DNA of 64,000 bases from Neisseriaceae bacterium (GTDB lineage Bacteria > Pseudomonadota > Gammaproteobacteria > Burkholderiales > Chromobacteriaceae). The first letter of the stretch is position 1. Every line of letters starts with the position of its first letter. Shown here piece after piece: positions 9,128 through 60,713 of the stretch. The stretch lies in assembly GCA_027489245.1 (NCBI GenBank), contig JAIYAC010000004.1, positions 1 through 64,000 of the forward strand, given 5' to 3'. The position numbers and the translations under genes are program-made. Under the pieces are notes generated by a model. It made no database searches and was not told the DNA's origin. It saw only the letters and a program-made list of their open reading frames with translations.

Positions 9128-9562
9128 ATGTTGCTGAATACCATTAAGCCTGCCGCTGGCGCTAAACACGCCAAGCGTCGTGTAGGTCGTGGCATTGGTA
9201 GCGGCCTGGGTAAAACCGCTGGTCGTGGCCATAAAGGTCAGAAGAGCCGTGCAGGTGGCTTCCACAAAGTAGGCTTCGAAGGTGGTCAAATGCCACTGCA
9301 ACGTCGCCTGCCGAAGCGTGGCTTCAAGTCGCTGACTGCTGGTGATGTGGCTGAAGTTCGCCTGTCCGAGCTGGCACTGCTGCCAGTTGCCGAGGTGGAT
9401 CTGCTGTCCCTGAAACAGGCTGGTCTGGTTCCTGTGCAAGCACTGGGTGCCAAACTGATCCTGTCCGGCTCCGTTGATCGTGTATTTACCCTGCGTGGCG
9501 TTGCTGCTACCGCGGGTGCTAAAGCTGCGATCGAAGCTGCTGGTGGCAGTTTCGTAGAATAA
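9128..9562 (+). CDS. rplO: 50S ribosomal protein L15
   Basis: A 144-residue L15. The Gly/Lys/Arg-rich N-terminal block [20 protein letters not shown], followed by [15 protein letters not shown], identifies it. secY starts 10 bp downstream, as in most bacteria. Confidence 0.98.
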
Positions 9563-9572
9563 GGCGCAATCC

Positions 9573-44193: not shown

Positions 44194-45059
44194 TGCAAGC
44201 CACCCGCCAACCCGGTGCCGCCTCTTGGCTGCTGTCTGCCTGCTTGCATGCGGTGGTATTGCTCTGCCTGTGGTGGTCTGCCGCCCCGGAACAGCTGAAG
44301 ACCCCGCCACCGCTGGCGGTCGAGCTGTGGGCCGGTAATGCCGGCCAGGCCGCTGCACCAGTCGCCACGCCGGTTCCTGCGCCTAAGCCCGCCCCCGTAC
44401 CGGCTCCCGCGCCCGAAGTCAGTGCGAAAGCGCCGCCCCCGCCACCAGCCCCGGTGGTGGACAACCCGGCTGCCGATATCAAAGTACAAGCCGACAAGCC
44501 CGCCAGAAAACCGCCACAACCGGCAGCCAAACCTGCCGTAAAAGAACCGCCCGTGGCCAAAGCCAAGCCCGAGGCAGCCCCGCCAGAGCGTAGCCCGCCG
44601 CCCAAGCCGGCCAGTAACGCGGCCGCCAGGCCTGCGGCCAACCCCAAGCCCGCCGCGGTGAAAACCGACGACCTGCTGGCCGAGCTGGACGCGCTGCCGC
44701 CCGGCCCTGGGCAGGGCAAGGTGAGCCAGGCTGGTGCCAAAACCGGTGCCAAAGCTGGCGCCGCCACCGGCCAGCCAGACCTGAAACAGCAGTACGGCGA
44801 AGCCATCAAGAACCGTGTGCGCCCGTATATCGTGCTGCCGGATGGCATCAAAGGTAACCCCGAGGCATCGGTGGAGGTGATTATCCTGCCGACGCTGGAA
44901 ATCCGTAGCACCCGTATCCTGCGCAGTAGTGGCTCGCCAGCGTGGGACCAGGCGGTACTGGCGGCCCTGGCCGAAGTGCGGCGCTTCCCGCCGCTGCCCA
45001 AGGGCGCCGATTTTGCCGACTACCGCCGTATCACCCTTAATTTCCGCCCCAAGGAGTAA
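44193..45059 (+). CDS. tolA: TolA (TonB C-terminal family)
   Basis: A 288-residue envelope-spanning protein. It has an N-terminal TM (about residues 9-27), a long Pro/Ala/Lys-rich segment (about 50-165) and a C-terminal TonB/TolA domain (about 195-288, ending FPPLPKGADFADYRRITLNF). It links TolQR to TolB-Pal. Its linker is Pro-rich, not the long Ala/Lys helix of E. coli TolA. Confidence 0.88.
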   Translation: MQATRQPGAASWLLSACLHAVVLLCLWWSAAPEQLKTPPPLAVELWAGNAGQAAAPVATPVPAPKPAPVPAPAPEVSAKAPPPPPAPVVDNPAADIKVQADKPARKPPQPAAKPAVKEPPVAKAKPEAAPPERSPPPKPASNAAARPAANPKPAAVKTDDLLAELDALPPGPGQGKVSQAGAKTGAKAGAATGQPDLKQQYGEAIKNRVRPYIVLPDGIKGNPEASVEVIILPTLEIRSTRILRSSGSPAWDQAVLAALAEVRRFPPLPKGADFADYRRITLNFRPKE

Positions 45060-45063
45060 TGCC

Positions 45064-46353
45064 TTGCACCGACTGATTGCTTACTGCTGGCGCGTACTGC
45101 TGCTGGCCATGATGTTGGCCGCACCGCTGGCGCGCGCCGACCTGACTGTGGATATCGTGGGCGGTGGCAGCAGCCGCTACCCGCTGACCATTCTGCCCAT
45201 GCAAAACGAAGAATGGCTGCCCGAGGCGGTAACGCAAACGGTCAAAAGCGACCTGGCCATGACCGGCCTGTTCGGCCTGCTGGAGCCGCCAGGTGGCACC
45301 GCGCTGCCCGCCTCGCCGCAGGCATTCGACCCCGCGCCGTGGCAGCAAAACGGTAGCCGTGCCGTGCTGTACGGCAAAGTAAGCAAACTGGAAGGCGGCC
45401 TGCTACGCCTGACCTTCTGGGCCGAAACGGTGAACCCGCGCGAGCAGAAGCTGGCCGCCGAGTTTGATGTGCATAGCTCGCAGCTGCGCGATGTGGCACA
45501 CCGCATTGCCGACATGGTTTATGAGGCGCTGCTGGGCAGCAAGAGCCTGTTCGCCAGCCGTATTGCCTTTGTGGTGCAAAAAGGCAAAGAGTCGCGCCTG
45601 CAGGTAGCCGATGTGGATGGCCGCCGCGCGCAAACCGTGCTGCGCTCGGCTGAGCCGATCATTTCGCCCGCGTGGAGCCCGGACGGCAGCCGTCTGGCGT
45701 ATGTGTCGTTCGAGAACAAAAAGCCGGTGATCTACGTGCAAGACCTGGCTACTGGCCAGCGCCGCCTGCTGGCCAACTTCAAAGGCAGCAACTCGGCGCC
45801 GACCTGGAGCCCGGACGGCCGCAAGCTAGCCATCGTGCTGACATTAAGCGGTAATTCACAGGTGTATATTATCAATGCCGATGGTACAGGCTTAAGCCGA
45901 TTCTCTTATAGCGACGCTATCGATACCGAGCCGGTATTCAGCCCGGATGGCCGCCAGATCGCGTTTGTGTCCGACCGCAGCGGCGGGCCGCAGATTTACA
46001 TCCAGCCGCTGGATGGCAGCAAAACCGTGCGCCGCGTGACCTTCCAGGGCGTGTACAACGTGTCGCCGGCCTTCTCGCCAGACGGCCGCCAGCTGGCCTA
46101 TGTGCGTCGCGAGGGCGGGCGCTTCAAGGTGATGCTGCAAGACCTGGCCACTGGCGACGCGCGCATGATCAGCAACAGCGCGTTTGACGAATCGCCCAGC
46201 TTTGCCCCCAACGGCAAGATGGTGCTGTACGCCAGCGACGAAGGCGGGCGCAGCGTGCTGTACGCCGCCTCCACCCAACACCCTGGCCGCGTCAAGCTCG
46301 GTGTGCTGGAAGGCCAGGTACAAGACGCCGCCTGGGGCCCGTTTAACCCCTGA
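45064..46353 (+). CDS. tolB: Tol-Pal system beta-propeller protein TolB
   Basis: A 429-residue periplasmic protein. The TTG start at 45064, 8 bases after AAGGAG, gives a proper signal peptide (LLLAMMLAAPLARA, then DLTVDI). A TolB N-terminal domain precedes a six-bladed propeller with repeated AWSPDGSRLAYVS, TWSPDGRKLAIV and AFSPDGRQLAYV units. It binds Pal and TolA. Confidence 0.94.
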   Translation: MHRLIAYCWRVLLLAMMLAAPLARADLTVDIVGGGSSRYPLTILPMQNEEWLPEAVTQTVKSDLAMTGLFGLLEPPGGTALPASPQAFDPAPWQQNGSRAVLYGKVSKLEGGLLRLTFWAETVNPREQKLAAEFDVHSSQLRDVAHRIADMVYEALLGSKSLFASRIAFVVQKGKESRLQVADVDGRRAQTVLRSAEPIISPAWSPDGSRLAYVSFENKKPVIYVQDLATGQRRLLANFKGSNSAPTWSPDGRKLAIVLTLSGNSQVYIINADGTGLSRFSYSDAIDTEPVFSPDGRQIAFVSDRSGGPQIYIQPLDGSKTVRRVTFQGVYNVSPAFSPDGRQLAYVRREGGRFKVMLQDLATGDARMISNSAFDESPSFAPNGKMVLYASDEGGRSVLYAASTQHPGRVKLGVLEGQVQDAAWGPFNP

Positions 46354-46454
46354 CGGCTAAGGCGGTGGAACTTTGGTTTTGTTCAAAAGTCTTTATGGTT
46401 TAACCGATTCGATATCACTGGCTACACCCGGCCAGCCACAACAAGGAGCATTGC

Positions 46455-47000
46455 ATGAAAGTCTTACCCTTCGTCGTCGCCGCAGCGGCGGTATTGCTCA
46501 GTGCCTGCGCCAGTACCAGCAACCCGGCAGATAGTGCCAATGCCGGCAATACTGCCATCGTGTCCGGTAACAGTGGCAGCACCACCGGGAGCGCAGGCAG
46601 CAGCAGCCTGAACCCGGCCCAGCCACTGCCGCAGGTGGACGCAGCCGGTGCCGAGGCCGCCGCGTACGCCGGTGTGAACGGCAAAAGCGTGTTTTTTGAT
46701 TTTGACCAGTTCGCCATCAAAGACGAGTACAAGAGTGTGGTCGAAGCGCATGCTGCCTATCTGGGCAAGTACAAAGGGCACGTGCTGGTACAGGGCAATA
46801 CCGACGTACGTGGTAGCCGCGAATACAACCTGGCGCTGGGCCAGCGCCGTGCCGAAAGCGTGAAACAGTCGCTGGAAGTGCTGGGCGTGAAGCCGGAGCA
46901 GGTAGAAGCCGTGAGTTTTGGCATGGAAAAACCCCGTGCTAGCGGCACCGCCGATAGCGACCACGCGCAAAACCGCCGCGCCGATTTCGCTTATCAGTAA
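46455..47000 (+). CDS. pal: Peptidoglycan-associated lipoprotein Pal
   Basis: A 181-residue outer-membrane lipoprotein. It has lipobox LSAC (C18), a Ser/Gly/Thr-rich linker, and an OmpA-like peptidoglycan-binding domain from about residue 75 (SVFFDFDQFAIKDEY, GNTDVRGSREYNLALGQRRA). It is preceded by a 101-bp gap after tolB. Confidence 0.95.
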   Translation: MKVLPFVVAAAAVLLSACASTSNPADSANAGNTAIVSGNSGSTTGSAGSSSLNPAQPLPQVDAAGAEAAAYAGVNGKSVFFDFDQFAIKDEYKSVVEAHAAYLGKYKGHVLVQGNTDVRGSREYNLALGQRRAESVKQSLEVLGVKPEQVEAVSFGMEKPRASGTADSDHAQNRRADFAYQ

Positions 47001-47085
47001 ACCCCGGCCGGCCACGCCGGCTTGACCTGCATCCGGGAAGGCGTCAACCTGCCCGGATTGCCCATTCTGCAAAGCCCGAACCACC

Positions 47086-47841
47086 ATGCGTAACCGACTG
47101 CTCCCCCTGCTGTTGCCCATCGTACTGGGTGCGTGTGCCACCACTACCGATCTGGAACAGGCGCGTCTGGACCTGGAAACCAAGCTGGCCAGCTCCAGCC
47201 AGCAAGCTAGCGCACGTTTGTCCGACGTAGAAGCCAAGCTGGCCAACCAGCGCCTGCTGGACCTGGTCAACCAGGTGACGCTGCTGAAAGGCGAAATGGC
47301 CACGTTGCGCGGGCAGAACGAGGTGCTGCAACACCAGGTAGCCGAAACGCAAAAGCGCCAGAACGACCTGTATAACGATATCGACCTGCGCCTGGGCAAG
47401 ATGGAAAAGCAGCTGCGCGAAGCCAGCCAGCCGCAAGCCGAGGCACCCGCTGCCGAGCCCGCTGCGGCCAACCCTGCCGAGACCGCACTGGCGCGTGGGC
47501 TGGAAGTACTGCGTGCCCGCGACTTTGCCAAATCGCTGCCCCTGCTCAAAGCCGTGGCCGATGGCTACCCCGGTAGCGAGCAGAGCCTGGAGGCCACCTA
47601 CTGGATGGGCGTGGCGCACACCGCACTGAAGCAATACAGCGCCGCCATCGATATCCAGCGCCGTTTTGCCGAGCAAAACCCCAAGCACCCGAAAGCCGCT
47701 GAAACCCTGCGCCTGATGGCGGGTAACCAGCTACAGCTGGAGCAGAAAGACCAGGCCCGCCTGACGCTGCGCAAAATCATCAAGCAATACCCTGGCACCC
47801 CGGCGGCGCAGCGCGCCCAGCAACAGCTGGCCACGCTATAG
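47086..47841 (+). CDS. cpoB: Tol-Pal system protein YbgF / cell division coordinator CpoB
   Basis: A 251-residue protein with an N-terminal coiled coil (about residues 20-105) and C-terminal TPRs (about 125-250; YPGSEQSLEATYWMGVAHTALKQY). It coordinates Tol with peptidoglycan synthesis at division. The signal ends in LGAC, a lipobox, whereas E. coli CpoB has an ordinary cleavable signal; lipidation is therefore predicted here. Confidence 0.9.
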   Translation: MRNRLLPLLLPIVLGACATTTDLEQARLDLETKLASSSQQASARLSDVEAKLANQRLLDLVNQVTLLKGEMATLRGQNEVLQHQVAETQKRQNDLYNDIDLRLGKMEKQLREASQPQAEAPAAEPAAANPAETALARGLEVLRARDFAKSLPLLKAVADGYPGSEQSLEATYWMGVAHTALKQYSAAIDIQRRFAEQNPKHPKAAETLRLMAGNQLQLEQKDQARLTLRKIIKQYPGTPAAQRAQQQLATL

Positions 47842-47870
47842 CCTGGCCAAGGCCCACACGCTGTTATCGA

Positions 47871-47907
47871 AAAGCCGGCTTTCCCACGGGAATGCCGGCT
47901 TTGTCTT
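47871..47907 (+). terminator. Probable terminator of the tol-pal genes
   Basis: AAAGCCGGC (47871-47879) pairs with GCCGGCTTT (47894-47902), followed by GTCTT. The U-run is short. Confidence 0.7.
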
Positions 47908-48006
47908 GCCGGGAAGATGCTTCCGTGGAAGGTAAATCCCGGCGGCAAGCCCTTGCCAAATCAGGTAAAATTCCGTTTTTTCCCCTTCTTGACGGAATCA
48001 GCCTCC

Positions 48007-48495
48007 ATGATCGAAGTTGGCATCGTGATGGGTAGTAATAGCGACTGGGAAGTCATGCAAAACGCCGCGCGCGTTCTGAAAGACTTCGGCATCGCTTTCG
48101 AAACCCGCGTCGTCTCCGCCCACCGTACCCCCGACCTTCTGTTCCAGTACGCCGAAACCGCCGAAGCGCGTGGCCTGAAAGCCATCATCGCCGGTGCAGG
48201 TGGCGCCGCCCACCTGCCGGGCATGCTGGCCGCCAAGACCCACATCCCGGTACTGGGCGTGCCTGTGCCGTCCAAATACCTGCGTGGTGAAGATTCCCTG
48301 CTGTCCATCGTGCAAATGCCCAAAGGCATTCCCGTGGCCACCTTCGCCATTGGCGAAGCCGGTGCGGCCAACGCTGGCCTGTTTGCCATCGCCATGCTGG
48401 CCACTGGCAACCCCGAGCTGGCGGCCAAGCTGAAGGCCTTCCGCAAGCAACAAGAAGACACCGTGCTGGCGATGAGCCTGCCGGAGGTACAGTAA
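48007..48495 (+). CDS. purE: N5-carboxyaminoimidazole ribonucleotide mutase
   Basis: A 162-residue class I PurE converting N5-CAIR to CAIR in purine synthesis. It contains [23 protein letters not shown] and [15 protein letters not shown]. The ATG at 48007 is chosen over an upstream in-frame start, by homology. A one-base overlap (TAATG) couples it to purK. Confidence 0.96.
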
Positions 48496-49625
48496 TGGCC
48501 GCCATTTTGCCGCCAGCCATGCTGGGCATCCTCGGTGGTGGCCAGCTGGGCCGCATGTTTGTTACCGCCGCCAAGCGCATGGGCTACCGCGTCACCGTGC
48601 TTGACCCGGACGCCAGCGCCCCGGCCGCCGAGTTTGCCGATGTGCACCTGTGCGCCGCGTTTGACGACGCCGATGCCCTGGCTACCCTGGCGCGTACCTG
48701 TGCTGCGGTGACCACCGAGTTTGAAAACGTCAACGCCGACGCCATGCGTCTGCTGGCCAAGACCACCCGTGTATCGCCGTCCGGCGATTGCGTGGCCATT
48801 GCCCAGGACCGCATTGCCGAAAAAAGCTGGGTAGGCAAGGCTGGCCTGCCTACCGCGCCGTATCTGGCGATTGAAAGCGTGGAAGACATACAGGTCGAGC
48901 TGTCGCCCTATCTGCCGGGCATTCTCAAGACCGCCCGCCTGGGCTACGACGGCAAAGGCCAGGTGCGCGTCAAAACCGCCGACGAAGCCCGCGCTGCCTA
49001 CGCCAACCTGGGCGGCCAGGCCTGCGTGCTGGAAAAAATGCTGGACCTGAAGCTGGAAGTCTCGGCCATTGTGACCCGCACCAGTGCGGCGCAAGTGGCC
49101 GTGTTCCCGGTATCGGAAAACATCCACCAGAACGGCATTCTGGACGAGTCCATCGTGCCGGCGCGCATTGCGCCCGAGTTGGCCGCACGCGCACAGCAGT
49201 ACGCCGTACAGCTGGCCGAAGCGCTGGACTACGTGGGCGTACTGGCGGTGGAGTTCTTCGTCCTGGGCGACGATAGCCTGGTAGTCAACGAAATGGCGCC
49301 GCGCCCGCATAACTCCGGCCACTACACCATCGACGCCTGCGTCACCAACCAGTACCAGCAGCAAGTGCGCGCCATGTGCGGCCTGCTGCCAGGCAAGACA
49401 GACCTGCTGTCGCCCGTGGTGATGGTGAACCTGCTGGGCGATGTGTGGGGCGAGGACGGTAGCGAGCCGAACTGGGCTGTGCTGATGGAAGCACCCAACA
49501 CCCACCTGCACAGCTACGGCAAAAAACACGCCCGGCCAGGCCGCAAGATGGCGCACTACTGTGTGCTGGCGGCCAACGTAGACGACGCGCTGGAACAGGC
49601 GCGCGCGCTGAAAGACACCTTGTAA
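48495..49625 (+). CDS. purK: N5-carboxyaminoimidazole ribonucleotide synthase
   Basis: A 376-residue ATP-grasp enzyme making N5-CAIR from AIR, bicarbonate and ATP, so it consumes bicarbonate. It has LGILGGGQLGRMFVTAAKRMGY, GYDGKGQVRV and the C-terminal EMAPRPHNSGHYTIDA. It is coupled to purE and ends at a terminator. Confidence 0.96.
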   Translation: MAAILPPAMLGILGGGQLGRMFVTAAKRMGYRVTVLDPDASAPAAEFADVHLCAAFDDADALATLARTCAAVTTEFENVNADAMRLLAKTTRVSPSGDCVAIAQDRIAEKSWVGKAGLPTAPYLAIESVEDIQVELSPYLPGILKTARLGYDGKGQVRVKTADEARAAYANLGGQACVLEKMLDLKLEVSAIVTRTSAAQVAVFPVSENIHQNGILDESIVPARIAPELAARAQQYAVQLAEALDYVGVLAVEFFVLGDDSLVVNEMAPRPHNSGHYTIDACVTNQYQQQVRAMCGLLPGKTDLLSPVVMVNLLGDVWGEDGSEPNWAVLMEAPNTHLHSYGKKHARPGRKMAHYCVLAANVDDALEQARALKDTL

Positions 49626-49634
49626 TGAAAACAG

Positions 49635-49660
49635 GCGACGCCCACAAGGCGTCGCTTTTT
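49635..49660 (+). terminator. Intrinsic terminator between purK and purC
   Basis: GCGACGCC (49635-49642) pairs with GGCGTCGC (49648-49655), followed by TTTTT. It ends 20 bp before the purC ATG. Confidence 0.9.
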
Positions 49661-49679
49661 GCTTTGTGAAGGAAGTTTC

Positions 49680-50546
49680 ATGACCCAACTGACCAGCCTG
49701 AAAAAAATCTACTCGGGTAAAGTACGCGACCTGTACGAGATCGACGATCAGCGCATGCTGATGGTGGCCAGCGATCGCCTGTCCGCTTTCGACGTGATCC
49801 TGGACGACCCTATCCCAGGCAAGGGCCAGATCCTTACCGCCATTTCCAACTTCTGGTTCGACACCCTGAAAGACGTGGTGCCCAACCACCTGACTGGTGA
49901 CCAGGTAGAAGACGTGGTCGCCGCTGCCGAGCTGCCGCTGGTAGCCGGTCGTGCCGTGGTGGCCAAGCGCCTGAAGCCGGTGATGATCGAAGCCGTGGTG
50001 CGCGGCTATCTGGCTGGCTCCGGCTGGAAGGAATACCAGAAGTCCGGCACCGTGTGCGGCATTGCCCTGCCGGCCGGTCTGCAGGAATCCAGCAAGCTGC
50101 CTGAGCCTATCTTTACCCCGTCCACCAAGGCGGCAGTAGGCGACCACGACGAGAACATTACCTTTGCCCAGTGCGAAGCCATCGTGGGTGCCGAGCTGGC
50201 GGCCAAGGTGCGTGACACCGCCATCCTGCTGTACCAGACTGCTGCGGCCTTTGCGGCCAAGCGTGGCATCATCATCTGCGATACCAAGTTCGAGTTCGGC
50301 CTGGACGCCGACGGTACCCTGGTGCTGATGGACGAGGCGCTGACGCCGGACTCCAGCCGTTTCTGGCCGGCCGACAGCTACGCCGAAGGCACCACGCCAC
50401 CGTCGTTCGACAAGCAGTTCGTGCGCGACTGGCTGGAAGCTTCCGGCTGGAACAAGGCACCGCCAGCCCCGGCCGTACCGCTGGACGTACGCGAAAAAAC
50501 CGCGGCCAAATACCGCGAGGCGCTGGAGCGCCTGACCGCACAGTAA
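49680..50546 (+). CDS. purC: Phosphoribosylaminoimidazole-succinocarboxamide synthase
   Basis: A 288-residue SAICAR synthetase of the longer proteobacterial form. It shows [42 protein letters not shown] and [20 protein letters not shown] precedes the ATG at 49680. Although next to purEK, the intervening terminator implies partly separate expression. Confidence 0.96.
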
Positions 50547-50574
50547 GCCCTGGCCCACGCCAGACGCTTGCCCG

Positions 50575-50596
50575 GCCCGCCTAGCGCGGGCTTTTT
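50575..50596 (+). terminator. Intrinsic terminator after purC
   Basis: GCCCGC (50575-50580) pairs with GCGGGC (50586-50591), followed by TTTTT. Confidence 0.8.
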
Positions 50597-50662
50597 CATC
50601 CCCGCCTGCCGCACTGGTGGCATACTTGCGTTTTTATCGAACCTGCCAAGGGAGTAGCTCAT

Positions 50663-51244
50663 ATGGCCCGTAGCCAGCCCGCGCTCAGCACCGCCCGTTT
50701 ACAGCTTTTGCCGCCCGAAGCGGCCTGGGCCCGCGCCGTTCGCGACTACCAGCTGCGCAACCGCGAGCACCTTGCCCCGTGGGACCCGACCCACGGTGAT
50801 ATGTATTTCACCGAGCTGTTCTGGGGCATGCGCCTGCGCGAACGCATCGAGGACTTCAAGCTGGGCCGCGGTGCCATGTTTCTGGTGATGCACGACAAGC
50901 AGCCAGGGCAGGTGATCGGCACCCTTACCCTGAGCAATATCGTGCGCGGGGTGTTTCAGGCCTGCCACCTGGGCTACAACATCGATCATGCCTACCAGGG
51001 GCAGGGCATGATGAGTGAGGCCGTCGAGGCGGTGGTGCAGTTTGCCTTTCGCGACCTGGGCCTGCACCGCGTTCAGGCCAACTATCAGCCGGAAAACCAG
51101 CGCAGTGCACGCCTGCTCGCCAAGCTGGGCTTTACCATTGAGGGCCAGGCCAAGGAGTATCTGTTTCTGAATGGTGCCTGGCGCGACCATGTGCTGACCT
51201 CGCGCCGCAACCCGGATTTCGACAGCACGCCGCTACGCGCCTGA
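50663..51244 (+). CDS. RimJ-like GNAT-family N-acetyltransferase
   Basis: A 193-residue GNAT of the RimJ/RimL class, which acetylates N-terminal alanine of ribosomal proteins (RimJ: S5). It contains ARLQLLPPEAAWARAV, GTLTLSNIVRGVFQACHLGYNID, the acetyl-CoA loop YQGQGMMSEAVEAVV and YQPENQRSARLLAKLGF. RimJ and RimL cannot be separated with certainty from sequence alone. Single-gene unit. Confidence 0.85.
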   Translation: MARSQPALSTARLQLLPPEAAWARAVRDYQLRNREHLAPWDPTHGDMYFTELFWGMRLRERIEDFKLGRGAMFLVMHDKQPGQVIGTLTLSNIVRGVFQACHLGYNIDHAYQGQGMMSEAVEAVVQFAFRDLGLHRVQANYQPENQRSARLLAKLGFTIEGQAKEYLFLNGAWRDHVLTSRRNPDFDSTPLRA

Positions 51245-51275
51245 TCCCTTAACGTGCTAACCGCTGTGCCGCAGG

Positions 51276-51285
51276 GTTGGCCGCA
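51276..51285 (+). repeat. Intergenic copy of the dispersed 10-mer
   Basis: GTTGGCCGCA lies between the RimJ-like gene and the sbtA promoter. Confidence 0.9.
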
Positions 51286-51313
51286 TGGCGGAAAAGGCCT
51301 ATTCCTCATGGGG

Positions 51314-51341
51314 TTGGCGGAATTTTTGCATGCGTTATGAT
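51314..51341 (+). promoter_or_regulatory. Possible promoter of the sbtA-sbtB genes
   Basis: TTGGCG (51314-51319), 16-bp spacer and TATGAT (51336-51341), 29 bp before the sbtA ATG. Motif evidence only. Confidence 0.45.
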
Positions 51342-51370
51342 GTGGCCTCCTCATCATGCAAGGTGTTCCG

Positions 51371-52303
51371 ATGACGCTAGACCCTGTGGTGCTTTTCTTT
51401 GTGCTGGGCTTGCTGGCAGCGCTGGCCAAGTCTGATCTCAAACTCCCCCCCGCACTATACGAAACCCTGTCGGTGTTTCTGCTGATTGCCATCGGCCTGA
51501 AGGGTGGCGTGGCCTTGTCCAAGCTCACCGGCAGCGCGGTACTGTGGCAGGTGGTGGCGGTGATTGTGCTGGGGGCGGCATTAACGCTCGTGGCCTTTGC
51601 CGTGTTGCGCTGGCGCCTGGGCCGGGCGGATGCCGCGGCCACTGCAGCGCATTATGGCTCGGTCAGTGTGGTGACGTTTGCCGTGGCCAGTGCCTATCTG
51701 TCGCGCCAGGGCGTGGAGGCCGAGCCGCAGCTCACTGTGTTTCTGGCGGTGATGGAAATGCCGGCGCTGGTGGTGGGTGTGTTGCTGGCCCGTATGGGTG
51801 GCGACAAGCGGGTGAACTGGGGCCGCCTGGCGCACGAGGTGTTTCTGGGCAAGAGCATGGTGCTGCTGATGGGCGGCTTGCTGATAGGCTGGATCGCCGG
51901 TGCGGACGGCATCAAGAGCCTGTCGCCGCTGTATATCGATCTGTTCAAGCCGGTGCTGTCGCTCTTTCTGCTGGAGATGGGTTTGCTTACCGCCGGTAAG
52001 CTGGCCGGCCTGCGTACCCAGGGGCTGTTTGTGGTGGCGGTGGCGACGCTGATGCCCTTGCTGTTTGCCTGCCTGGGTCTGGCCACCGCCGTGGCCATGG
52101 GGCTATCGGTGGGTGGGGCGATGCTGCTGGCTACCCTGTGCGCCTCGTCGTCCTATATTGCCGCCCCGGCTGCCATGCGCATTGCCGTGCCAGAGGCCAA
52201 CCCGGCCATTTCGCTGGCCGCCAGCCTGGGCGTGACCTTCCCGTTTAACCTGTTGCTCGGTATCCCGCTGTACCTGTGGCTGGCACAGCAGGTCTATGCC
52301 TGA
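51371..52303 (+). CDS. sbtA: Sodium-dependent bicarbonate transporter SbtA family
   Basis: A 310-residue inner-membrane protein with about ten hydrophobic segments, belonging to the DUF897/SbtA family. It shows FFVLGLLAALAKSDLKLPPALYE, IAIGLKGGVALSK and the duplicated HYGSVSVVTFAVASAYL and CASSSYIAAPAAMRIA motifs. In cyanobacteria SbtA imports bicarbonate with sodium. The next gene encodes an SbtB-like PII protein, supporting the assignment. ATG 51371 follows AAGGTG. Confidence 0.88.
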   Translation: MTLDPVVLFFVLGLLAALAKSDLKLPPALYETLSVFLLIAIGLKGGVALSKLTGSAVLWQVVAVIVLGAALTLVAFAVLRWRLGRADAAATAAHYGSVSVVTFAVASAYLSRQGVEAEPQLTVFLAVMEMPALVVGVLLARMGGDKRVNWGRLAHEVFLGKSMVLLMGGLLIGWIAGADGIKSLSPLYIDLFKPVLSLFLLEMGLLTAGKLAGLRTQGLFVVAVATLMPLLFACLGLATAVAMGLSVGGAMLLATLCASSSYIAAPAAMRIAVPEANPAISLAASLGVTFPFNLLLGIPLYLWLAQQVYA

Positions 52304-52313
52304 AAGGAACACC

Positions 52314-52616
52314 ATGCCATTTCATGACAAAAAACTGCTGACCATCGTGACCGAGTCGGTACTGGAGGCACGGCTGGTGAAGGATATCCAGCGCCTGGGG
52401 GCACACGGCTATACCGTGGTGGATGCGCGCGGTGGTGGCGCACACGGTGTGCAGGGCGGGGCGTGGAGTTTCGACCGCAATATCCGCATTGATGTGGTGT
52501 GCGACGCACAAGTGGCCGAGGCAATTGCGCTACGCTGCGAACAAAGCTATCTGCCGGACTATGGCCTGATCCTGTATGTTTCGGATGTAGGGGTGCTACG
52601 CGCAGACAAGTTCTAG
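52314..52616 (+). CDS. sbtB: PII-like signalling protein, SbtB type
   Basis: A 100-residue ferredoxin-fold PII-like protein. LLTIVTESVLEARLVKDIQRLGAHGYTVVDA precedes a short T-loop-like GGGAHGVQGG and a LPDYGLILYVSDVGVL C-terminus. It matches SbtB, which binds adenine nucleotides (including cAMP in cyanobacteria) and gates SbtA. The classical GlnB uridylylation tyrosine loop is not evident. The C-terminal CGPxGC-type redox loop of some SbtB proteins is absent. It starts 10 bp after sbtA behind AAAGGA. Confidence 0.85.
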   Translation: MPFHDKKLLTIVTESVLEARLVKDIQRLGAHGYTVVDARGGGAHGVQGGAWSFDRNIRIDVVCDAQVAEAIALRCEQSYLPDYGLILYVSDVGVLRADKF

Positions 52617-52645
52617 TGCGAGCCTGCCAGACATCAGGGGGAAAC

Positions 52646-53560
52646 ATGACGCAAACCTTTCGTTTGACCGCCAGTGATGGTGCCGATATCCATGGTTGCT
52701 ATTGGCTGCCTGCTGGCGAGCCACGCGCAGTGGTGGTCATCAGCCATGGCATGAGCGAGTACGGCGGGCGCTATCAGGCGCTGGCACAAAAGCTGGTGTT
52801 GGCGGGCTACGCGGTGTATGCACACGATCACCGTGGCCACGGCCGCCATGCGCCGCTACCCGGCTGGTTTGCCGAACAAGGCGGCTGGCAGCGGGTGGTG
52901 GATGACCTGCGCGAGGTGGTGGACTACGCCCGGCAGCAGCACGAGCGCCCGGTGGTGCTGTATGGCCACAGTATGGGCAGCTTTATTGCCCGGGCTTTCA
53001 TCCTGCGCTACGGCCAGCGCCTGGCCGGGCTGGTGCTTTCTGCTACCGGCTACCGTCAGCGCTACCTGTCGCGTGTGATGCGTGGTGTCGCCAGGTTGGC
53101 CGCCAGGCTGGGGGGCGCCAGCAAACCCAGTACGTTCATGACGGCGCTGGTGTTCGGCAGCTTCAATCTGGGGTTTTTGCCTGCGCGTACCCGGCTGGAC
53201 TGGCTAAGCCGCGACCCGGCGCAGGTGGATGCCTATATTGCCGACCCGCTCTGCGGCCAACATCCTACGCCGCAGCTGTGGATCGACTTGTTTGGCGGCA
53301 TTATCGAGCTGGAGCTGGGCGAGGCCGATGGCCGTGCGCTGCCCAAGGCCTGCCCGGTATGGCTGCAGGCCGGCAGCCGCGACCCGGTAAGCCTGGGCAA
53401 GTTTGGCCTGGGCCAGCTGGCCAGCCGCTACCGTGCAGCAGGCATGCAGGATGTGAGCGTTACGGTGTACCCGGGCGGGCGCCACGAAATGCACAATGAA
53501 ACCAACCGTACCCAGCTGGAGGCCGATTTGCTGGCCTGGCTGAACCGCATTACCGCCTGA
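52646..53560 (+). CDS. Alpha/beta hydrolase (lysophospholipase / monoacylglycerol lipase type)
   Basis: A 304-residue serine hydrolase. It has VVISHGMSEYGGRY, the nucleophile elbow VLYGHSMGSFIAR, and late Asp (QAGSRDPVSLG) and His (YPGGRHEMHNE) giving the catalytic triad. This is the pattern of monoglyceride lipase and PldB-like enzymes. It lies 29 bp after sbtB, same strand, so it may be co-transcribed; the ribosome site is AGGGGGA. Confidence 0.85.
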   Translation: MTQTFRLTASDGADIHGCYWLPAGEPRAVVVISHGMSEYGGRYQALAQKLVLAGYAVYAHDHRGHGRHAPLPGWFAEQGGWQRVVDDLREVVDYARQQHERPVVLYGHSMGSFIARAFILRYGQRLAGLVLSATGYRQRYLSRVMRGVARLAARLGGASKPSTFMTALVFGSFNLGFLPARTRLDWLSRDPAQVDAYIADPLCGQHPTPQLWIDLFGGIIELELGEADGRALPKACPVWLQAGSRDPVSLGKFGLGQLASRYRAAGMQDVSVTVYPGGRHEMHNETNRTQLEADLLAWLNRITA

Positions 53561-53574
53561 GCCGTGTTAGCCGT

Positions 53575-53609
53575 AAAAAAAGCACCGTCACGCTAGACGG
53601 TGCTTTTTT
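53575..53609. terminator. Bidirectional terminator between the hydrolase and carbonic-anhydrase-like genes
   Basis: GCACCGTC (53582-53589) and GACGGTGC (53596-53603) form the stem, flanked by seven A (53575-53581) and six T (53604-53609). It serves the two convergent genes. Confidence 0.95.
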
Positions 53610-53628
53610 CTTGTATAGCCAGGCTGGT

Positions 53629-54186
53629 TCAGCCTTTGGCGACGATTTGCTGCACGCTGCCATCCAGCGCCATCAGGTAGGTTTCTACCGCCAGCTGCGG
53701 GTATTTGGCCAGAATCTGCTTGCGTAGCGTCATCAGGGTCTCGGCGTGGATCTGCGTTTCTTTTTCCGGCATTTTGCCAAAGTCCTCGCCCAGTACCACC
53801 TTGTAGGCGCCGCAGTCGCGGTGGTCGAGAATCATCACCTTGTGAATGTGGTGCAGGCTGATGGCCACGTCCAGGTGCTCCCAGAATGCCTGGTTCCAGG
53901 CGGGGAACTTGCTGGTGATCGCCCCCAGTGCCGCCCCAGCCAGCACGATATGGTCGTACTTGTTCTTCATGCCTTGCCCGGCCATGAACGCTTCGGTGTC
54001 GTCTACCAGGCGATAGTCCATACACGACAGCAGCAGCGCGTCGGTACCGCCGGCAGCATGCGCCGTTTGCGGCAGAAAGCTGCCTAGCAGGGCTGCGCCA
54101 CTACCCAGCGCGGCAAGCTGCACAAACTGGCGGCGGCCAGGGTTGGCCGCAGTGTCACGCGGTGCATGAGTGGGGCATTGGCACAT
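53629..54186 (-). CDS. Tat-exported beta-carbonic-anhydrase-like protein
   Basis: A 185-residue protein with a twin-arginine signal (GRRQFVQLAALGSGAALLGS, cleavage likely after AHA near residue 44), predicting periplasmic export. The mature part resembles beta-carbonic anhydrases: LSCMDYRL supplies the first Cys/Asp pair and ILDHRDCGAYK the His and second Cys zinc ligands. It is shorter and divergent from classical enzymes, so activity is not certain. It converges on the sbtA-sbtB-hydrolase genes. Confidence 0.82.
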   Translation of the reverse strand: MCQCPTHAPRDTAANPGRRQFVQLAALGSGAALLGSFLPQTAHAAGGTDALLLSCMDYRLVDDTEAFMAGQGMKNKYDHIVLAGAALGAITSKFPAWNQAFWEHLDVAISLHHIHKVMILDHRDCGAYKVVLGEDFGKMPEKETQIHAETLMTLRKQILAKYPQLAVETYLMALDGSVQQIVAKG

Positions 54187-54278
54187 GATTTTCTCCCTGA
54201 ATTTATCAATAGTCTGGCTACATTCTAGGTGATTTATGGCGTGATGTCGTATGCGCAGGGTAGGGCCACGGTGCAGAA

Positions 54279-56415
<2,137 letters not shown>

Positions 56416-56481
56416 TTTACTGAACGACTGCCTCCCGGCCTGCCCTACGCAGGTTGGGTGACGAACACTTTATAAAGTGCG

Positions 56482-56514
56482 AAAGACTGCTAGCGTGCCT
56501 GGCAGTCTTTTTTT
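56482..56514 (+). terminator. Intrinsic terminator after fadH
   Basis: AAAGACTGC (56482-56490) pairs with GCAGTCTTT (56502-56510), followed by TTTT. Confidence 0.92.
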
Positions 56515-56757
56515 ATTTCATTGTTATATTCTTTTGGCATTTAAAAATGTCGGGTTGCGGCATTTTTGCCATAAAAGAAGCAATTACCGATAGAATTTAG
56601 CCAAATCAAAAATTCATATTTATTGAAATGCTAGATTGCCGTGGCGTGTTGACGGTACATTGTTAAGCATCAGCTGCCTGACTTTAAAGTCTTGCCTGAG
56701 GTGTTTACTGTCTGCGCGACGAGTGAATCGCCAAAATAACGATAAAGGAATGCCAGG
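56515..56757 (+). other. AT-rich upstream region of the PhnD-like gene
   Basis: Part of a 342-bp gap between fadH and the next gene. It is markedly AT-rich to about 56640, holds a short GGCATTTTTGCC inverted repeat near 56557-56572 and a TTGACG at about 56649 without a good -10. No gene is seen; it is presumably promoter DNA. Confidence 0.5.
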
Positions 56758-57582
56758 ATGGCCAAAAAATTCCTGCTGCTATGCCTGACTGCCTGCTGCC
56801 TGAGCCCCTTGGCGCAGGCAGCAGACATGCTGGTGCTGGGTGTGGTGCCGTACCTGTCGGCACGCAAGCTGGCCGAACTGTACGAGCCGATGCGTGTCCA
56901 GCTGCAAGGTGCTTTGGGCGTGCCGGTTGTCATCGAGTCGGCACCAGACTACCAAAGCTATCTTGAGCGCACCGCTCAGGGCCGCTACGACGTGATTGCC
57001 ACGTCGCCTTACTTCGGCCGCCTGGCGCAGCAGGAACAAGGCTACGAGCCGCTGGCCCGCCCGCAAACCAACCTTGAGCCCTTGCTGGTCACCCGCAAGG
57101 ATGGTGTCAATACGCTGGAAGCCCTGCGCGGCAAGGTGGTTTCCACCAGCGACAAGCTGGCTAACCTGACGTTGGCCGCACAGCGCTACCTGATCCAGAA
57201 TGGCCTGACCCCGGGCAAGGATGTCATCATTCGCCCTGCCGGCAGCCACGCCAATTCTGTCCAGGCGCTGCTGAACGGTGAATCCGCCGCCGCTATCATT
57301 TCTGTTACCGCCTTGCGTCAGCTTCACCCCGGTACCACGGTACGGGTGCGCATCATGAAGCGTCTGCCGCAGACCACACCATTGCTGTACCTGGCGAACA
57401 AGCGCCTGGGCAGCAGCCGTATCGATAGCCTGCGTCGCCAATTGTTCCAGTTTGCCAACCACACCGAAGAAGGCCAGGCTTTCAGTAAAGAGCTGGGGCA
57501 TGGTGGCCTGAAAGAGATTTCCGCTGCGGACATGAAGGCGCTGGACCCGTATGTGCAGGATTTGAAGGCGATGCTGAAATAA
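56758..57582 (+). CDS. PhnD-like periplasmic substrate-binding protein
   Basis: A 274-residue protein with a cleavable signal (KKFLLLCLTACCLSPLAQA, cut near residue 21). The type-2 periplasmic binding fold is of the phosphate/phosphite/phosphonate (PhnD) family: VLGVVPYLSARKLAELYEPM, SAPDYQSYLERTAQGRYDVIATSPYFGRLA and GSHANSVQALLNGESAAAI. No ABC permease or ATPase is nearby. The next gene, a GGDEF-EAL sensor, overlaps its stop by one base, so it probably feeds a signal to that sensor rather than a transporter. Confidence 0.87.
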   Translation: MAKKFLLLCLTACCLSPLAQAADMLVLGVVPYLSARKLAELYEPMRVQLQGALGVPVVIESAPDYQSYLERTAQGRYDVIATSPYFGRLAQQEQGYEPLARPQTNLEPLLVTRKDGVNTLEALRGKVVSTSDKLANLTLAAQRYLIQNGLTPGKDVIIRPAGSHANSVQALLNGESAAAIISVTALRQLHPGTTVRVRIMKRLPQTTPLLYLANKRLGSSRIDSLRRQLFQFANHTEEGQAFSKELGHGGLKEISAADMKALDPYVQDLKAMLK

Positions 57583-60500
57583 TGGCCATTGACCTGCGGC
57601 CGCGTTCGCTGACCTGGATCATCATTCCGGCCTTGTTCGTGGTGCAGCTGCTGCTGTTTGGCATTATTGCCTGGCAGAGCGTGCACATGATGCGCGAAAT
57701 GGCAGTAGAGCAAACGCGTGTGCGTCTGGGCAGCCTGCAGGTAGAGCTGCGCGCCGCCCTGGTCGCGCCGATGCTGGAGCGTGACTACAGTACGCTGCAG
57801 GAAATTACCGACGAACTGACCCGTTCCAGTGACCTGGCCTACCTGGTGGTGCGGGATAGCGCCGGCAAGATCATGGCCCGTAGCGGCATGCAGATACAGC
57901 GTTTTACCGCAGATAGCGATATCGCCGGCAGCAACGATCCTTTATTCGACACCCGTTTTCCGCTGACGCAGGGCGAAGTACAGCTGGGTTTGCGCGTGGC
58001 AGAGGCGCGGCAGATTTTCCTCAACTTCATCCAGCGTACCGCCCCGATGGTGGTGGTGGCGGGCCTGCTGGCCACCGTCTGGATGGTGTTGGTCACGGTA
58101 TGGATTGTGCGGCGGCTAAAGCGTTTGACCCAGGCTGCCGAATCGCTGGGCCATGGCACCTTGTCGGTTCGGGCGCCGGAAGACGGTGTAGACGAAGTGG
58201 GCCGCTTGGGCCTGGCTTTTAACCGTATGGCCGCAGCGGTGCAGTCGGCAGACGAAAAGTGGGCCAAGAGTCAGCGTTTCACCGATATGCTGCTGCTGGC
58301 CATGCCGATGCCGGTGTTTTACAAGGATGCGCAAGGCCGCTACATGGGCTGTAACGATGCCTTTGCCCGGGTTACCGGCCTGAGCCGGCGCGATATTCGT
58401 GGCAAGGTGGCCGCCGAGCTATGGCCCGCCGAGTTGGCCGCACTGCACATGCGGCACGATGAGGCGCTCAACGCCGGCCTGGGGCACCAGGAATACGCCG
58501 GCCTGCTGACCGACCAGCACGGCCTGCAGCGGCATGTGATTTTTTCCAAGGACGTGTTCTACGACGATCTGGGCCAGATTGCCGGCATTATCGGCGCCTG
58601 GAACGACATCTCTGACCTGCGTCGTGCCGAAGGCCGGTTGCAGCTGTTGGCCGGGGTATTCAAGCATTCGCGTGAAGGCATTGTGATTGCCGATGCCAGC
58701 GGCCGGGTGGTGGATGTGAACCGTGCGCTGTGCGAGATCAGCGGTTTCGAGCGGGACGAAGTGGTCGGGCAAATGCCCAGCCACTTTTACTCTGGCCGGC
58801 ACGACGAAGACTTTTACCAAGCCATCCGTACCACCCTGGGCCAGAAAGGCCATTGGCAGGGCGAGGTGTGGAACCGGCGCAAAGATGGCAGCCTCTACCC
58901 GGTATTGCTATCGATTTCCATCATTTACGACCAGCAGGGCCTGGTACGCCATTACATCGCCGTGTTTGCCGATATCACGGTGATGAAAGAGCAGGAAGCC
59001 CGGCTGGACCGCATGGCGCACCACGACCCGCTTACCCAGCTACCGAACCGCGTTTTGCTGGGCGACCGCATGCGTGTGGCCATTGCCCAGGCCAGCCGTA
59101 GTGGCCAGTGGCTGGCGATCTGCTTCATGGACCTGGACAGCTTCAAACGCGTCAACGATCGTTACGGCCACGATGTAGGCGACCAGCTGCTGATCAACAT
59201 TGCCGACCGCCTGCAGCTAACCATGCACGGCGGGGATACCGTGGCACGGCTGGGCGGCGATGAATTCGCCCTGCTGTTATCCGGCCTGCCCGATATTGAA
59301 GCCTGTCACCAGACCCTGCACCGGATTCTGGAGACCGTCGCCCAGCCCTGCGATATCGGCGATATCCAGATACAAGTCTCGGCCAGTATCGGCGTCACCC
59401 TGTACCCGCAAGACGAGCAGGATGCCGACACCCTGCTGCGCCACGCCGACCAGGCTATGTACAAAGCCAAAGACCTGGGCCGCAATGGCTACCAGATTTT
59501 CGACGCAGAGCACGACCGCCAGAGCCGTAGCCGCCTGCAAAGCCTGCAGCGGCTGGAGCAGGCCTTGATACAGGGCGAGCTACAGCTGTACTACCAGCCC
59601 AAGGTCAATATGCGCGATGGCCAGATCGTGGGCATGGAGGCCTTGATGCGCTGGCACCATCCCCAGCGCGGCGTTCTGGCCCCCGGTGCCTTTCTGCCCG
59701 AAGTGGAAGATAGCCACCTGGATGTCCGCCTGGGCGAGTGGGTGATCGCTACCGCCTTGCAACAGATGGCACTGTGGCGCGGCGAAGGGCGGGTACTGTC
59801 GGTGAGTGTGAATATCTCTGCCCACCATCTGCAGCAGTCGGATTTTGCTGCCCGTCTGGCCTGCCTGCTGGACGCCCACCCGGATGTACCGCGCGGCATG
59901 CTGGAAATCGAGGTACTGGAAAGTACGGCGCTCTCCGATGTAGACCACGTTGGCCGCTTGATGCAAATCTGCCAGGGTCTGGGGGTACGTTTCTCGCTGG
60001 ATGATTTTGGTACCGGCTATTCGTCCCTGCTGTATTTGAAACGCCTGCCGGCAGATAAGCTCAAGATTGACCAGTCGTTTATTCGCGGCATGCACGAAAG
60101 CAGCGACGACCTGGCCATTGTGCAGGGCATTATCGGCCTGTCCGAAGCCTTCAACCGAGAGCTGGTCGCCGAAGGCGTGGAAACCGTAGAGCACGGCAGC
60201 CTGCTACTGCACCTGGGCTGCGATGTGGCACAGGGCTATGGCGTAGCCAAACCCATGCCGGCTGGCGAGGTCGTAGCGTGGTGCCGTGGCTGGCATAGCC
60301 CGCCGGAATGGCTGGCGGCGCGCAAGCGTTGGTCACAGGAAGACATCTTCCTGTTTGGGCTGGAACTGAACCTGCGCAGCACATTGTCGCGCTTGCTTTC
60401 CCTGGCCCAGGAGCCGGGCGTGGAGGGCAGCTGGGTAGACGATGTTAGCGAGCGCTTCTTGCGCTGGTACGGCACCGACGGCCAGATGCGCTACGGCGGC

Positions 60501-60713
60501 CACGCCAGCTTTGTCCAGCTGGGCCAGCTGCAGTCTGCGTTGATGCTGCATTGCCAGCAGCTATGGCAGGCCTGCCAGCTGGGCGACGATGACGCCATCC
60601 AGCAGCATATCCCCATTATTTTCACCCTGCGCCAGCAGCACGAGCAGGCAGTGCACAGCCTGCTATCGGGTATGCCGCGGCTGCGGGAAGACAACCACAG
60701 CCTGTCCTTATAG
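57582..60713 (+). CDS. Membrane GGDEF-EAL protein with HAMP, two PAS domains and a C-terminal extension
   Basis: A 1043-residue c-di-GMP protein. TM1 lies at about 12-32, the periplasmic loop to about 145, TM2 at 147-170, then HAMP. Two PAS domains (about 222-345 and 350-470) lead to GGDEF with an intact ARLGGDEFALLL; the I-site position reads HGGD, not RxxD. The EAL domain is intact (GMEALMRWHHP, DDFGTGYSSLLYLKRLP, LVAEGVETVEH), so both synthesis and hydrolysis are possible. A ~150-residue tail has FLRWYGTDGQMRYG and a following LMLHCQQLW, resembling a CZB-like domain. TAATG overlap with the binding protein. Confidence 0.92.
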   Translation: MAIDLRPRSLTWIIIPALFVVQLLLFGIIAWQSVHMMREMAVEQTRVRLGSLQVELRAALVAPMLERDYSTLQEITDELTRSSDLAYLVVRDSAGKIMARSGMQIQRFTADSDIAGSNDPLFDTRFPLTQGEVQLGLRVAEARQIFLNFIQRTAPMVVVAGLLATVWMVLVTVWIVRRLKRLTQAAESLGHGTLSVRAPEDGVDEVGRLGLAFNRMAAAVQSADEKWAKSQRFTDMLLLAMPMPVFYKDAQGRYMGCNDAFARVTGLSRRDIRGKVAAELWPAELAALHMRHDEALNAGLGHQEYAGLLTDQHGLQRHVIFSKDVFYDDLGQIAGIIGAWNDISDLRRAEGRLQLLAGVFKHSREGIVIADASGRVVDVNRALCEISGFERDEVVGQMPSHFYSGRHDEDFYQAIRTTLGQKGHWQGEVWNRRKDGSLYPVLLSISIIYDQQGLVRHYIAVFADITVMKEQEARLDRMAHHDPLTQLPNRVLLGDRMRVAIAQASRSGQWLAICFMDLDSFKRVNDRYGHDVGDQLLINIADRLQLTMHGGDTVARLGGDEFALLLSGLPDIEACHQTLHRILETVAQPCDIGDIQIQVSASIGVTLYPQDEQDADTLLRHADQAMYKAKDLGRNGYQIFDAEHDRQSRSRLQSLQRLEQALIQGELQLYYQPKVNMRDGQIVGMEALMRWHHPQRGVLAPGAFLPEVEDSHLDVRLGEWVIATALQQMALWRGEGRVLSVSVNISAHHLQQSDFAARLACLLDAHPDVPRGMLEIEVLESTALSDVDHVGRLMQICQGLGVRFSLDDFGTGYSSLLYLKRLPADKLKIDQSFIRGMHESSDDLAIVQGIIGLSEAFNRELVAEGVETVEHGSLLLHLGCDVAQGYGVAKPMPAGEVVAWCRGWHSPPEWLAARKRWSQEDIFLFGLELNLRSTLSRLLSLAQEPGVEGSWVDDVSERFLRWYGTDGQMRYGGHASFVQLGQLQSALMLHCQQLWQACQLGDDDAIQQHIPIIFTLRQQHEQAVHSLLSGMPRLREDNHSLSL

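What the first reader, a model, noticed from the sequence alone, without database searches (positions are those of the whole stretch)
51371..54186. SbtA-SbtB bicarbonate uptake pair beside a Tat-exported carbonic-anhydrase-like gene in a heterotroph
sbtA and sbtB lie together, and two genes away (convergent) is a beta-CA-like protein with a twin-arginine signal. This suggests a periplasmic CO2-to-bicarbonate step feeding sodium-bicarbonate import, controlled by nucleotide-sensing SbtB. That is a carbon-concentrating logic outside autotrophs, perhaps for anaplerosis or purK and carboxylase supply (purEK are 2 kb away).
Basis: partly seen in the sequence, partly recalled or inferred. Interest (0 to 1): 0.62.

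Follow-up and report, generated by a model that had tools for sequence, protein, structure and literature searches.

The report
Bicarbonate uptake pair beside purine genes
A bacterium in which no RuBisCO was found carries a likely bicarbonate importer and its small regulator beside purine-making genes; relatives of this importer often sit beside enzymes that use or make bicarbonate, while the nearby exported carbonic-anhydrase-like gene looks like a separate unit.

Summary
The genes are real. sbtA (51371-52303) and sbtB (52314-52616) form an Sbt_1 carrier / PII-like pair; a Tat-signalled beta-carbonic-anhydrase-like gene (53629-54186, minus) is the second gene further on. No RuBisCO match in 61 of 61 family genomes searched. 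SbtA-like proteins in heterotrophs are already known (PMC10117731 passage).

In 27 of 27 family genomes with this CA it sits divergently beside an old-yellow-enzyme gene; 15 of these lack sbtAB, and 3 of 15 sbtAB genomes lack the CA. Its family is near sbtA in 0 of 195 other loci.

What recurs near sbtA is bicarbonate chemistry: within 5 kb, purE in 17 of 195 loci, pyruvate carboxylase in 8, ordinary beta-CA in 25, six control families in 0. In this family sbtAB follows purEKC(-rimJ) in 15 of 15.

Best reading: bicarbonate import for biosynthetic carboxylation, PurK the best-supported user. Against it: two bicarbonate-contact residues differ, and purE linkage was 0 of 58 in the phylum sample. 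The regulator lost R43xxR46 in 15 of 15. No transport was measured.

The parts
51371..52303 (+). sbtA, Sbt_1 (PF05982) carrier, 310 aa (possible start 51356)
   Evidence: PF05982 370.8 bits; phmmer hit to Synechocystis SbtA 7cye, E 3.6e-24
52314..52616 (+). sbtB-like PII protein, 100 aa, 10 bases after sbtA
   Evidence: PF00543 74.4 bits; TTHA0516 8e-22 and SbtB structures 4e-10 to 2e-9; R43xxR46 read as HxxQ
52646..53560 (+). alpha/beta hydrolase (Hydrolase_4), 29 bases after sbtB, probably same transcript (inferred); also present near this place in relatives without sbtAB
   Evidence: PF12146 187.6 bits; synteny
51314..51341 (+). promoter-like TTGGCG-16-TATGAT before sbtA
   Evidence: Scan (3 sites found in the region, 1.1 expected). 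Present exactly and at the same distance in 6 of 15 family rows, in variant form in 4, not found in 5
53576..53609 (.). two-way terminator-like hairpin between the hydrolase and the CA-like gene
   Evidence: 14-pair stem, -29.7 kcal/mol for 53561-53628, z -4.6; not listed by the terminator scan, which wants the T run after the stem
47917..50546 (+). purE (47917-48495), purK (48495-49625), purC (49659-50546), upstream neighbours of sbtAB in 15 of 15 family genomes with sbtAB; a weak terminator-like site 50574-50592 follows purC
   Evidence: PF00731, PF02222/PF17769, PF01259; synteny; scan, 4 terminator-like sites found against 3.7 expected
50663..51244 (+). GNAT acetyltransferase (RimJ-like) between purC and sbtA
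   Evidence: PF13302 80.6 bits; NF008072 159.1 bits, below its cut-off of 190
53629..54186 (-). Tat-signalled beta-CA-like protein (Pro_CA_2); judged a separate unit
   Evidence: PF20393 38.1 bits; TIGR01409 21 bits; C55 D57 R59 H122 C125 and R18 R19 invariant in 25 of 25 aligned rows, of 29 held; model matches beta-CAs
54385..56415 (+). old-yellow-enzyme-type flavin oxidoreductase, divergent neighbour of the CA-like gene
   Evidence: PF00724 320 bits; 27 of 27 CA loci in the family

Best explanation
sbtA-sbtB is a sodium-coupled bicarbonate uptake pair in a bacterium without a RuBisCO match. SbtA (trimeric elevator carrier by homology) brings HCO3- in with Na+. The SbtB-like trimer plugs or releases it according to adenylate state. 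The HCO3- serves biosynthetic carboxylation; PurK, which uses HCO3-, is the best-supported user in this lineage, with other carboxylases served too. In the window the pair has its own promoter-like site and is next to, not visibly co-transcribed with, purEKC; in some other lineages the same genes abut as in an operon. The Tat-signalled CA-like protein is a separate unit that keeps company with the OYE gene. Shown here: gene identities, conserved neighbourhoods, lost arginines. Inferred: substrate, direction, sodium coupling, regulation, purpose.
For: Family match 370.8 bits. Ser114 and Ser324 of Synechocystis SbtA, where Ala mutations cut transport (PMC8352866, whole text), are S99 and S261 here and invariant in 26 of 26 aligned rows, chosen from 72 held (correspondence read). 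sbtAB follows purEKC(-rimJ) in 15 of 15 family genomes that have it. Outside the family, within 5 kb of sbtA: purE 17, purK 16, pyruvate carboxylase A and B 8, beta-CA 25 of 195 loci; tolB, pal, cpoB, rimJ, OYE, pbp 0 each (some identities checked). The purEK label needs 13 changes on a 142-row SbtA tree, in orders sbtA-sbtB-purE-purK, sbtA-purE-purK, purE-purK-purC-sbtA-sbtB, purE-purK-sbtA-sbtB-purC, purK-purE-sbtA-sbtB. No RuBisCO match in 31 of 50 named genomes tested (50 of 80 were given). PurK uses HCO3- (PMC10880623, passage). Two Sbt proteins of Thiomicrospira pelophila rescued a CA-less E. coli and raised internal DIC (PMC12628692, passages).
Against: Tyr140 and Ser327 of Synechocystis SbtA are Leu125 and Ala264 here, and Ala at either place cut Synechocystis transport to 10-40% (PMC8352866). 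purE linkage is uneven: 3 of 57 class loci, 14 of 80 named loci (picked as most similar to SbtA of the window), 0 of 58 phylum loci; in 3 of the 17 (L213, L222, L234) purE is more than 2 kb off, in L234 on the other strand. The 13 changes may be gains or losses, and no shuffle control was run for that count. A promoter-like site before sbtA argues against one transcript with purEKC, though it is exact in only 6 of 15 family rows. The genome has other CA genes. For Shewanella SO_3758 the authors' modelling leaned to efflux (PMC12093963, passages).
Confidence: 0.55

Rival explanations
1. The first reader's module: the exported CA turns periplasmic CO2 into HCO3-, which SbtAB imports; the gene cluster is the unit of function.
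For: Zinc and dyad residues and the RR pair kept in 25 of 25 aligned rows; CA within 1.5 kb of sbtA in 8 of 15 family genomes, and next to sbtB with no window-like gene between in two of them (L163, L164). A beta-CA with a leader seen by eye follows sbtB in 4 other loci.
Against: CA sits beside OYE in 27 of 27, with sbtAB or without; 15 genomes have the CA without sbtAB, 3 have sbtAB without the CA, 4 have them about 14 kb apart. 0 of 195 outside loci have this CA family near sbtA. The Tat model is not met in the three cyanobacterial CAs. Another beta-CA with a leader seen by eye exists elsewhere in the genome.
Confidence: 0.17
2. A general bicarbonate or pH/anaplerosis carrier; the purine neighbourhood is incidental or only an expression convenience.
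For: Relatives sit beside pyruvate carboxylase (8 of 195) and beta-CA (25 of 195) as well, so demand may differ by lineage; own promoter-like site; purE 0 of 58 in the phylum sample.
Against: Kept behind purEKC in 15 of 15 family genomes; purEK linkage is scattered over the tree in several gene orders.
Confidence: 0.19
3. The carrier moves another small anion (formate, for example) or works as an exporter.
For: SO_3758 of Shewanella affects formate tolerance and the authors' modelling leans to efflux (PMC12093963, passages); two of four docked HCO3- contacts differ, one being the very Ala change that lowered Synechocystis transport.
Against: The same two substitutions occur in rows L119 and L133 from RuBisCO-bearing genomes, L133 near a CsoS2-like gene by my reading; frequent neighbours are bicarbonate enzymes.
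Confidence: 0.09

Closest known systems
Cyanobacterial SbtA-SbtB (Synechocystis slr1512-slr1513)
   Same: Same families, same gene order, Ser114 and Ser324 kept
   Different: Tyr140 and Ser327 replaced; T-loop about 5 residues shorter; no R43xxR46 and no C-terminal CGPxGC loop in SbtB; genome without a RuBisCO match
Sbt and Sbt-CS of Thiomicrospira pelophila (PMC12628692, passages)
   Same: Proteobacterial Sbt carriers, shown to raise internal DIC in E. coli
   Different: There in a chemoautotroph with carboxysomes; not placed on my trees
SO_3758 of Shewanella oneidensis (PMC12093963, passages)
   Same: Sbt_1 carrier of a heterotroph; a Shewanella relative (L248) lies in the same half of the tree as the window
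   Different: No SbtB found in L248 by the model used; studied for formate tolerance
MpsAB of Staphylococcus aureus (PMC6689103, passages)
   Same: Bicarbonate supply to a non-autotroph at air CO2; its authors already name pyruvate carboxylase, acetyl-CoA carboxylase and the purine carboxylation step as users
   Different: Another protein family (recalled, not compared here)
TTHA0516 of Thermus thermophilus (2cz4)
   Same: Closest solved relative of this SbtB, similarly short T-loop
   Different: Keeps both arginines

Membership tests
Sbt_1 (PF05982) sodium/bicarbonate carriers | Full-length match to the family model | tested here: met
   370.8 bits, profile 1-308 of 308
Sbt_1 (PF05982) sodium/bicarbonate carriers | Serines at the crossover (Ser114, Ser324 of Synechocystis SbtA) | tested here: met
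   S99 and S261, invariant in 26 of 26 aligned rows
Sbt_1 (PF05982) sodium/bicarbonate carriers | Sodium-dependent HCO3- transport | not testable with these tools
   needs an uptake assay
Synechocystis-type SbtA | Tyr140 and Ser327 as docked HCO3- contacts (PMC8352866) | tested here: not met
   Leu125 and Ala264; also so in rows L119 and L133 from RuBisCO-bearing genomes. Not filed as Synechocystis-type, only as Sbt_1
SbtB PII-like regulators | PII family model and gene next to sbtA | tested here: met
   PF00543 74.4 bits; adjacent in 15 of 15 family genomes
SbtB with ATP clamp and apyrase (Synechocystis type) | R43xxR46 | tested here: not met
   HQ 11, HK 2, YK 2 of 15 family rows; both Arg in 62, only the second in 27, neither in 28 of 123 other rows
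SbtB with ATP clamp and apyrase (Synechocystis type) | C-terminal CGPxGC redox loop | tested here: not met
   protein ends ...RADKF; no row of the alignment shows CGP (its three PDB rows were fragments)
beta-carbonic anhydrase | Pfam PF00484 over its cut-off | tested here: not met
   22.4 bits against 25.7; PF20393 'putative carbonic anhydrase' is met at 38.1 against 30. Filed as beta-CA-like only
beta-carbonic anhydrase | CxDxR ... HxxC zinc and dyad residues | tested here: met
   C55 D57 R59 H122 C125 in 25 of 25 aligned rows
beta-carbonic anhydrase | beta-CA fold | tested here: inconclusive
   model pLDDT 80, pTM 0.71; the 50 rows shown are beta-CAs, best E 1.8e-6, but TM (query) only 0.43-0.54 with rmsd 5-13.5
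beta-carbonic anhydrase | CO2 hydration activity | not testable with these tools
   needs an assay
CO2-concentrating mechanism of autotrophs | RuBisCO served by the transporter | tested here: not met
   0 of 61 family genomes

The most novel reading that the evidence does not exclude
A feedback loop for purine synthesis: an SbtB that has shed the ATP clamp reads AMP or cAMP, that is, products of the pathway, and throttles bicarbonate entry for PurK, so that bicarbonate supply is regulated as a purine precursor in heterotrophs; several lineages have built the purEK-sbtA link independently.
Probability: 0.16. Interest if true: 0.72.

Novelty: new variant of a known kind. Interest (0 to 1): 0.45.

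Why it matters
What SbtA does in heterotrophs is open (the one study I saw concerns formate tolerance). Repeated adjacency to PurK, pyruvate carboxylase and carbonic anhydrase points to bicarbonate for biosynthesis, an idea already put forward for MpsAB of S. aureus, and gives simple tests. It also shows an SbtB lineage without the arginines needed for the Synechocystis apyrase, useful for separating nucleotide sensing from hydrolysis.

Tried and rejected
Exported-CA module: rejected as the unit. CA-OYE as a general pair: not seen outside the family; the two outside genomes with PF20393 in the class sample (G299, G382) show no OYE hit in the 20 kb read. CA-versus-transporter trade-off: PF00484 matches are in 61 of 61 genomes; the strong type (best E below 1e-30) is in 11 of 13 same-genus genomes, missing from G000 (88% complete) and G058, but also from 17 others of which 16 lack sbtAB, so no clear trade-off. 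alpha-CA: 3 of 61, none in sbtAB genomes. Autotroph origin: the window's 15-row SbtA clade is well supported (100/99); its place among mixed autotroph and heterotroph groups is unsure. No Rfam match in 44000-60000. CA: no PDB sequence match at E <= 1, hence the model. Leaders of other CAs: a simple RR pattern also flagged L212 and L218, which I read as upstream non-coding translation; the Tat model finds neither. Literature: the listings of searches (12 of 15 shown; no paper; 10 of 27 shown) and passages of PMC10880623 and PMC6689103 showed no sbtA-purEK or sbtA-pyruvate-carboxylase neighbourhood; most subscription papers are not held.

Full report
What is there. sbtA (51371-52303) matches PF05982 over its whole length at 370.8 bits and sbtB (52314-52616) matches PF00543 at 74.4 bits. 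They are 10 bases apart; an alpha/beta hydrolase follows 29 bases after sbtB, then a strong hairpin (53576-53609; fold of 53561-53628 z -4.6; coordinates checked), then the convergent CA-like gene. The genome has one PF05982 match. The nearest solved relative of SbtB is TTHA0516, then SbtB structures. The CA-like protein passes PF20393 but not PF00484, passes the Tat model, keeps CxDxR and HxxC in 25 of 25 aligned rows (25 given of 29 held), and its model (pLDDT 80) finds beta-CAs in the PDB with modest TM-scores (0.43-0.54).

Family distribution. Of 61 family genomes, 15 have Sbt_1 over the cut-off (two further weak hits not counted), the same 15 have sbtB, 27 have the PF20393 CA and 0 have a RuBisCO match. 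All 15 keep purE-purK-purC-(rimJ)-sbtA-sbtB; in L163 and L164 no rimJ hit lies between. All 27 CA genes sit beside OYE, divergently: 12 in genomes with sbtAB, 15 without. The CA is within 1.5 kb of sbtA in 8 of 15, about 14 kb away in 4 and absent in 3. In one same-genus genome (G055) and 13 genomes of another genus the order is purE-purK-purC-rimJ-hydrolase-CA-OYE with no sbtAB, in some with other genes between. So sbtAB is a pair present or absent in a standing neighbourhood, and the CA keeps company with OYE. Outside the family that company was not seen: 0 of 2.

Transcription signals. A promoter-like TTGGCG-16-TATGAT precedes sbtA. It is exact and at the same distance in 6 of 15 family rows, in variant form in 4 (L163-L166) and not found in 5 (L149, L151, L153, L155, L162). 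Terminator-like sites in the region are no more frequent than in shuffles (4 against 3.7), so the one after purC is weak evidence. I see no sign of one purEKC-sbtAB transcript here.

Wider Sbt_1 genes. In class and phylum samples 54 of 369 and 55 of 398 genomes pass the cut-off. Of the 54, 35 have a strong RuBisCO match, 4 a weak one, 15 none (the split by E-value is mine). In the class sample many loci carry carboxysome-, CbbR- or SulP-like neighbours (named by my reading of the sequences, not by a family search). Of 50 of the 80 named genomes, 31 have no RuBisCO match. An SbtB-like gene is within 5 kb of sbtA in 50 of 57, 73 of 80 and 27 of 58 loci by the model used, so the pair is not universal.

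Neighbours. Over 195 loci outside the family (57 class, 80 named, 58 phylum; L097 and L208 are near-identical, L209 and L210 have identical SbtA, some genomes give two or three loci) I counted genes within 5 kb of sbtA. purE: 3, 14, 0. purK: 3, 13, 0. Pyruvate carboxylase A and B: 0, 5, 3. PF00484-type beta-CA: 0, 12, 13 (one of the 12, L258, is a short weak piece). PF20393-type CA: 0, 0, 0. purC: 2, both with purEK. Controls tolB, pal, cpoB, rimJ, OYE, pbp: 0 each; their models were built from the window's own family and may miss distant copies, so the zeros are a soft control. Chance placement in a 3.5 Mb genome would give about 0.6 purE in 195 (my arithmetic). The named set was chosen by similarity to the window's SbtA, not by neighbours. 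Pfam confirms PurK in three loci, pyruvate carboxylase subunits in two, beta-CA in four; the others rely on my models. The cyanobacterial CAs after sbtB (L247, L250, L262) have an RR leader by eye only; the Tat model is not met.

Independence. On a 142-row tree the purEK label (21 rows, six of them from the window's family) needs 13 changes, gains and losses not told apart, no shuffle control for that number, quick method with many open forks. The orders differ: sbtA-sbtB-purE-purK (Aeromonas, Pseudohongiella, a Chromatiales and a gammaproteobacterial MAG), sbtA-purE-purK (Pleionea, Halioglobus, a MAG, G085), purE-purK-purC-sbtA-sbtB and purE-purK-sbtA-sbtB-purC (two betaproteobacterial MAGs), purK-purE-sbtA-sbtB (a Pseudomonadales MAG, a MAG labelled Akkermansia, G200). 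Nine of the 12 closely linked named genomes have no RuBisCO match, two a strong one (G429, G431), one a weak one (G442). Pyruvate carboxylase precedes sbtAB in three Pseudomonas rows, one Stutzerimonas row and a MAG, one clade, and in three phylum-sample genomes not on the tree.

Regulator. SbtB of the family lacks both arginines of R43xxR46 in 15 of 15 rows; of 123 other rows 62 keep both, 27 only the second and 28 neither, so the loss is not unique to this family. In Synechocystis these hold the ATP phosphates and either mutation ends apyrase activity (PMC10117731, passages). The redox loop is also missing. If nucleotides still bind, ATP/ADP should bind weakly; AMP and cAMP sensing could persist. 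Untested.

Carrier. Ser114 and Ser324 are kept; Tyr140 and Ser327 are Leu and Ala, and Ala at any of the four lowered Synechocystis transport to 10-40% (PMC8352866). The two changes also occur in rows L119 and L133 from RuBisCO-bearing genomes, so they do not mark heterotrophs; whether such carriers are slower, or bind differently, is open. Two T. pelophila Sbt proteins moved DIC in E. coli (PMC12628692, passages), but I did not place them on the tree.

Own carbonic anhydrases. One search counts three PF00484 matches in the genome and lists two places outside the window: one protein without an evident signal (L272) and one with a Sec-type leader and a His-rich stretch (L273), both read by eye. 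SbtA is therefore unlikely to be the only bicarbonate source.

Verdict. A pair of known families in a kind of organism where such carriers were already known (PMC10117731 passage), and a purpose already proposed for another carrier in S. aureus (PMC6689103 passages), with one thing I did not find in print in the searches named above: repeated linkage of SbtA to purEK, pyruvate carboxylase and beta-CA. That supports bicarbonate as the substrate and biosynthesis as the purpose, and demotes the exported CA to a neighbour.

Noticed in passing
53629-56415: A Tat-signalled Pro_CA_2 protein and an OYE-type flavin oxidoreductase are divergent neighbours in 27 of 27 family genomes with the CA, but not in the 2 outside loci read; no functional link is known to me, and beta-CA folds also host non-CA enzymes (recalled).
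   Followed up: partly
L247, L250, L262 (about 9220-10010): beta-CA with an RR-type leader by eye directly after sbtB in three cyanobacteria; NCBI's Tat model is not met.
   Followed up: partly
L308, L311, L314, L317 and other phylum loci: A PF00484-type beta-CA within 5 kb of sbtA in 13 of 58 phylum-sample loci, no leader seen by eye where the start is evident; a cytosolic CA beside an importer is not what a carbon-concentrating scheme predicts.
   Followed up: partly
G000:C3:483-872 (L273): Another beta-CA with a leader (by eye) and a long His-rich N-terminal stretch elsewhere in the genome.
   Followed up: partly
56758-60713: Phosphonate-type periplasmic binding protein (PF12974) followed by a large membrane protein with GGDEF/EAL-like sequence (by eye), near OYE in the window and in 10 of 13 other CA loci of genera g1 and g4.
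   Followed up: no
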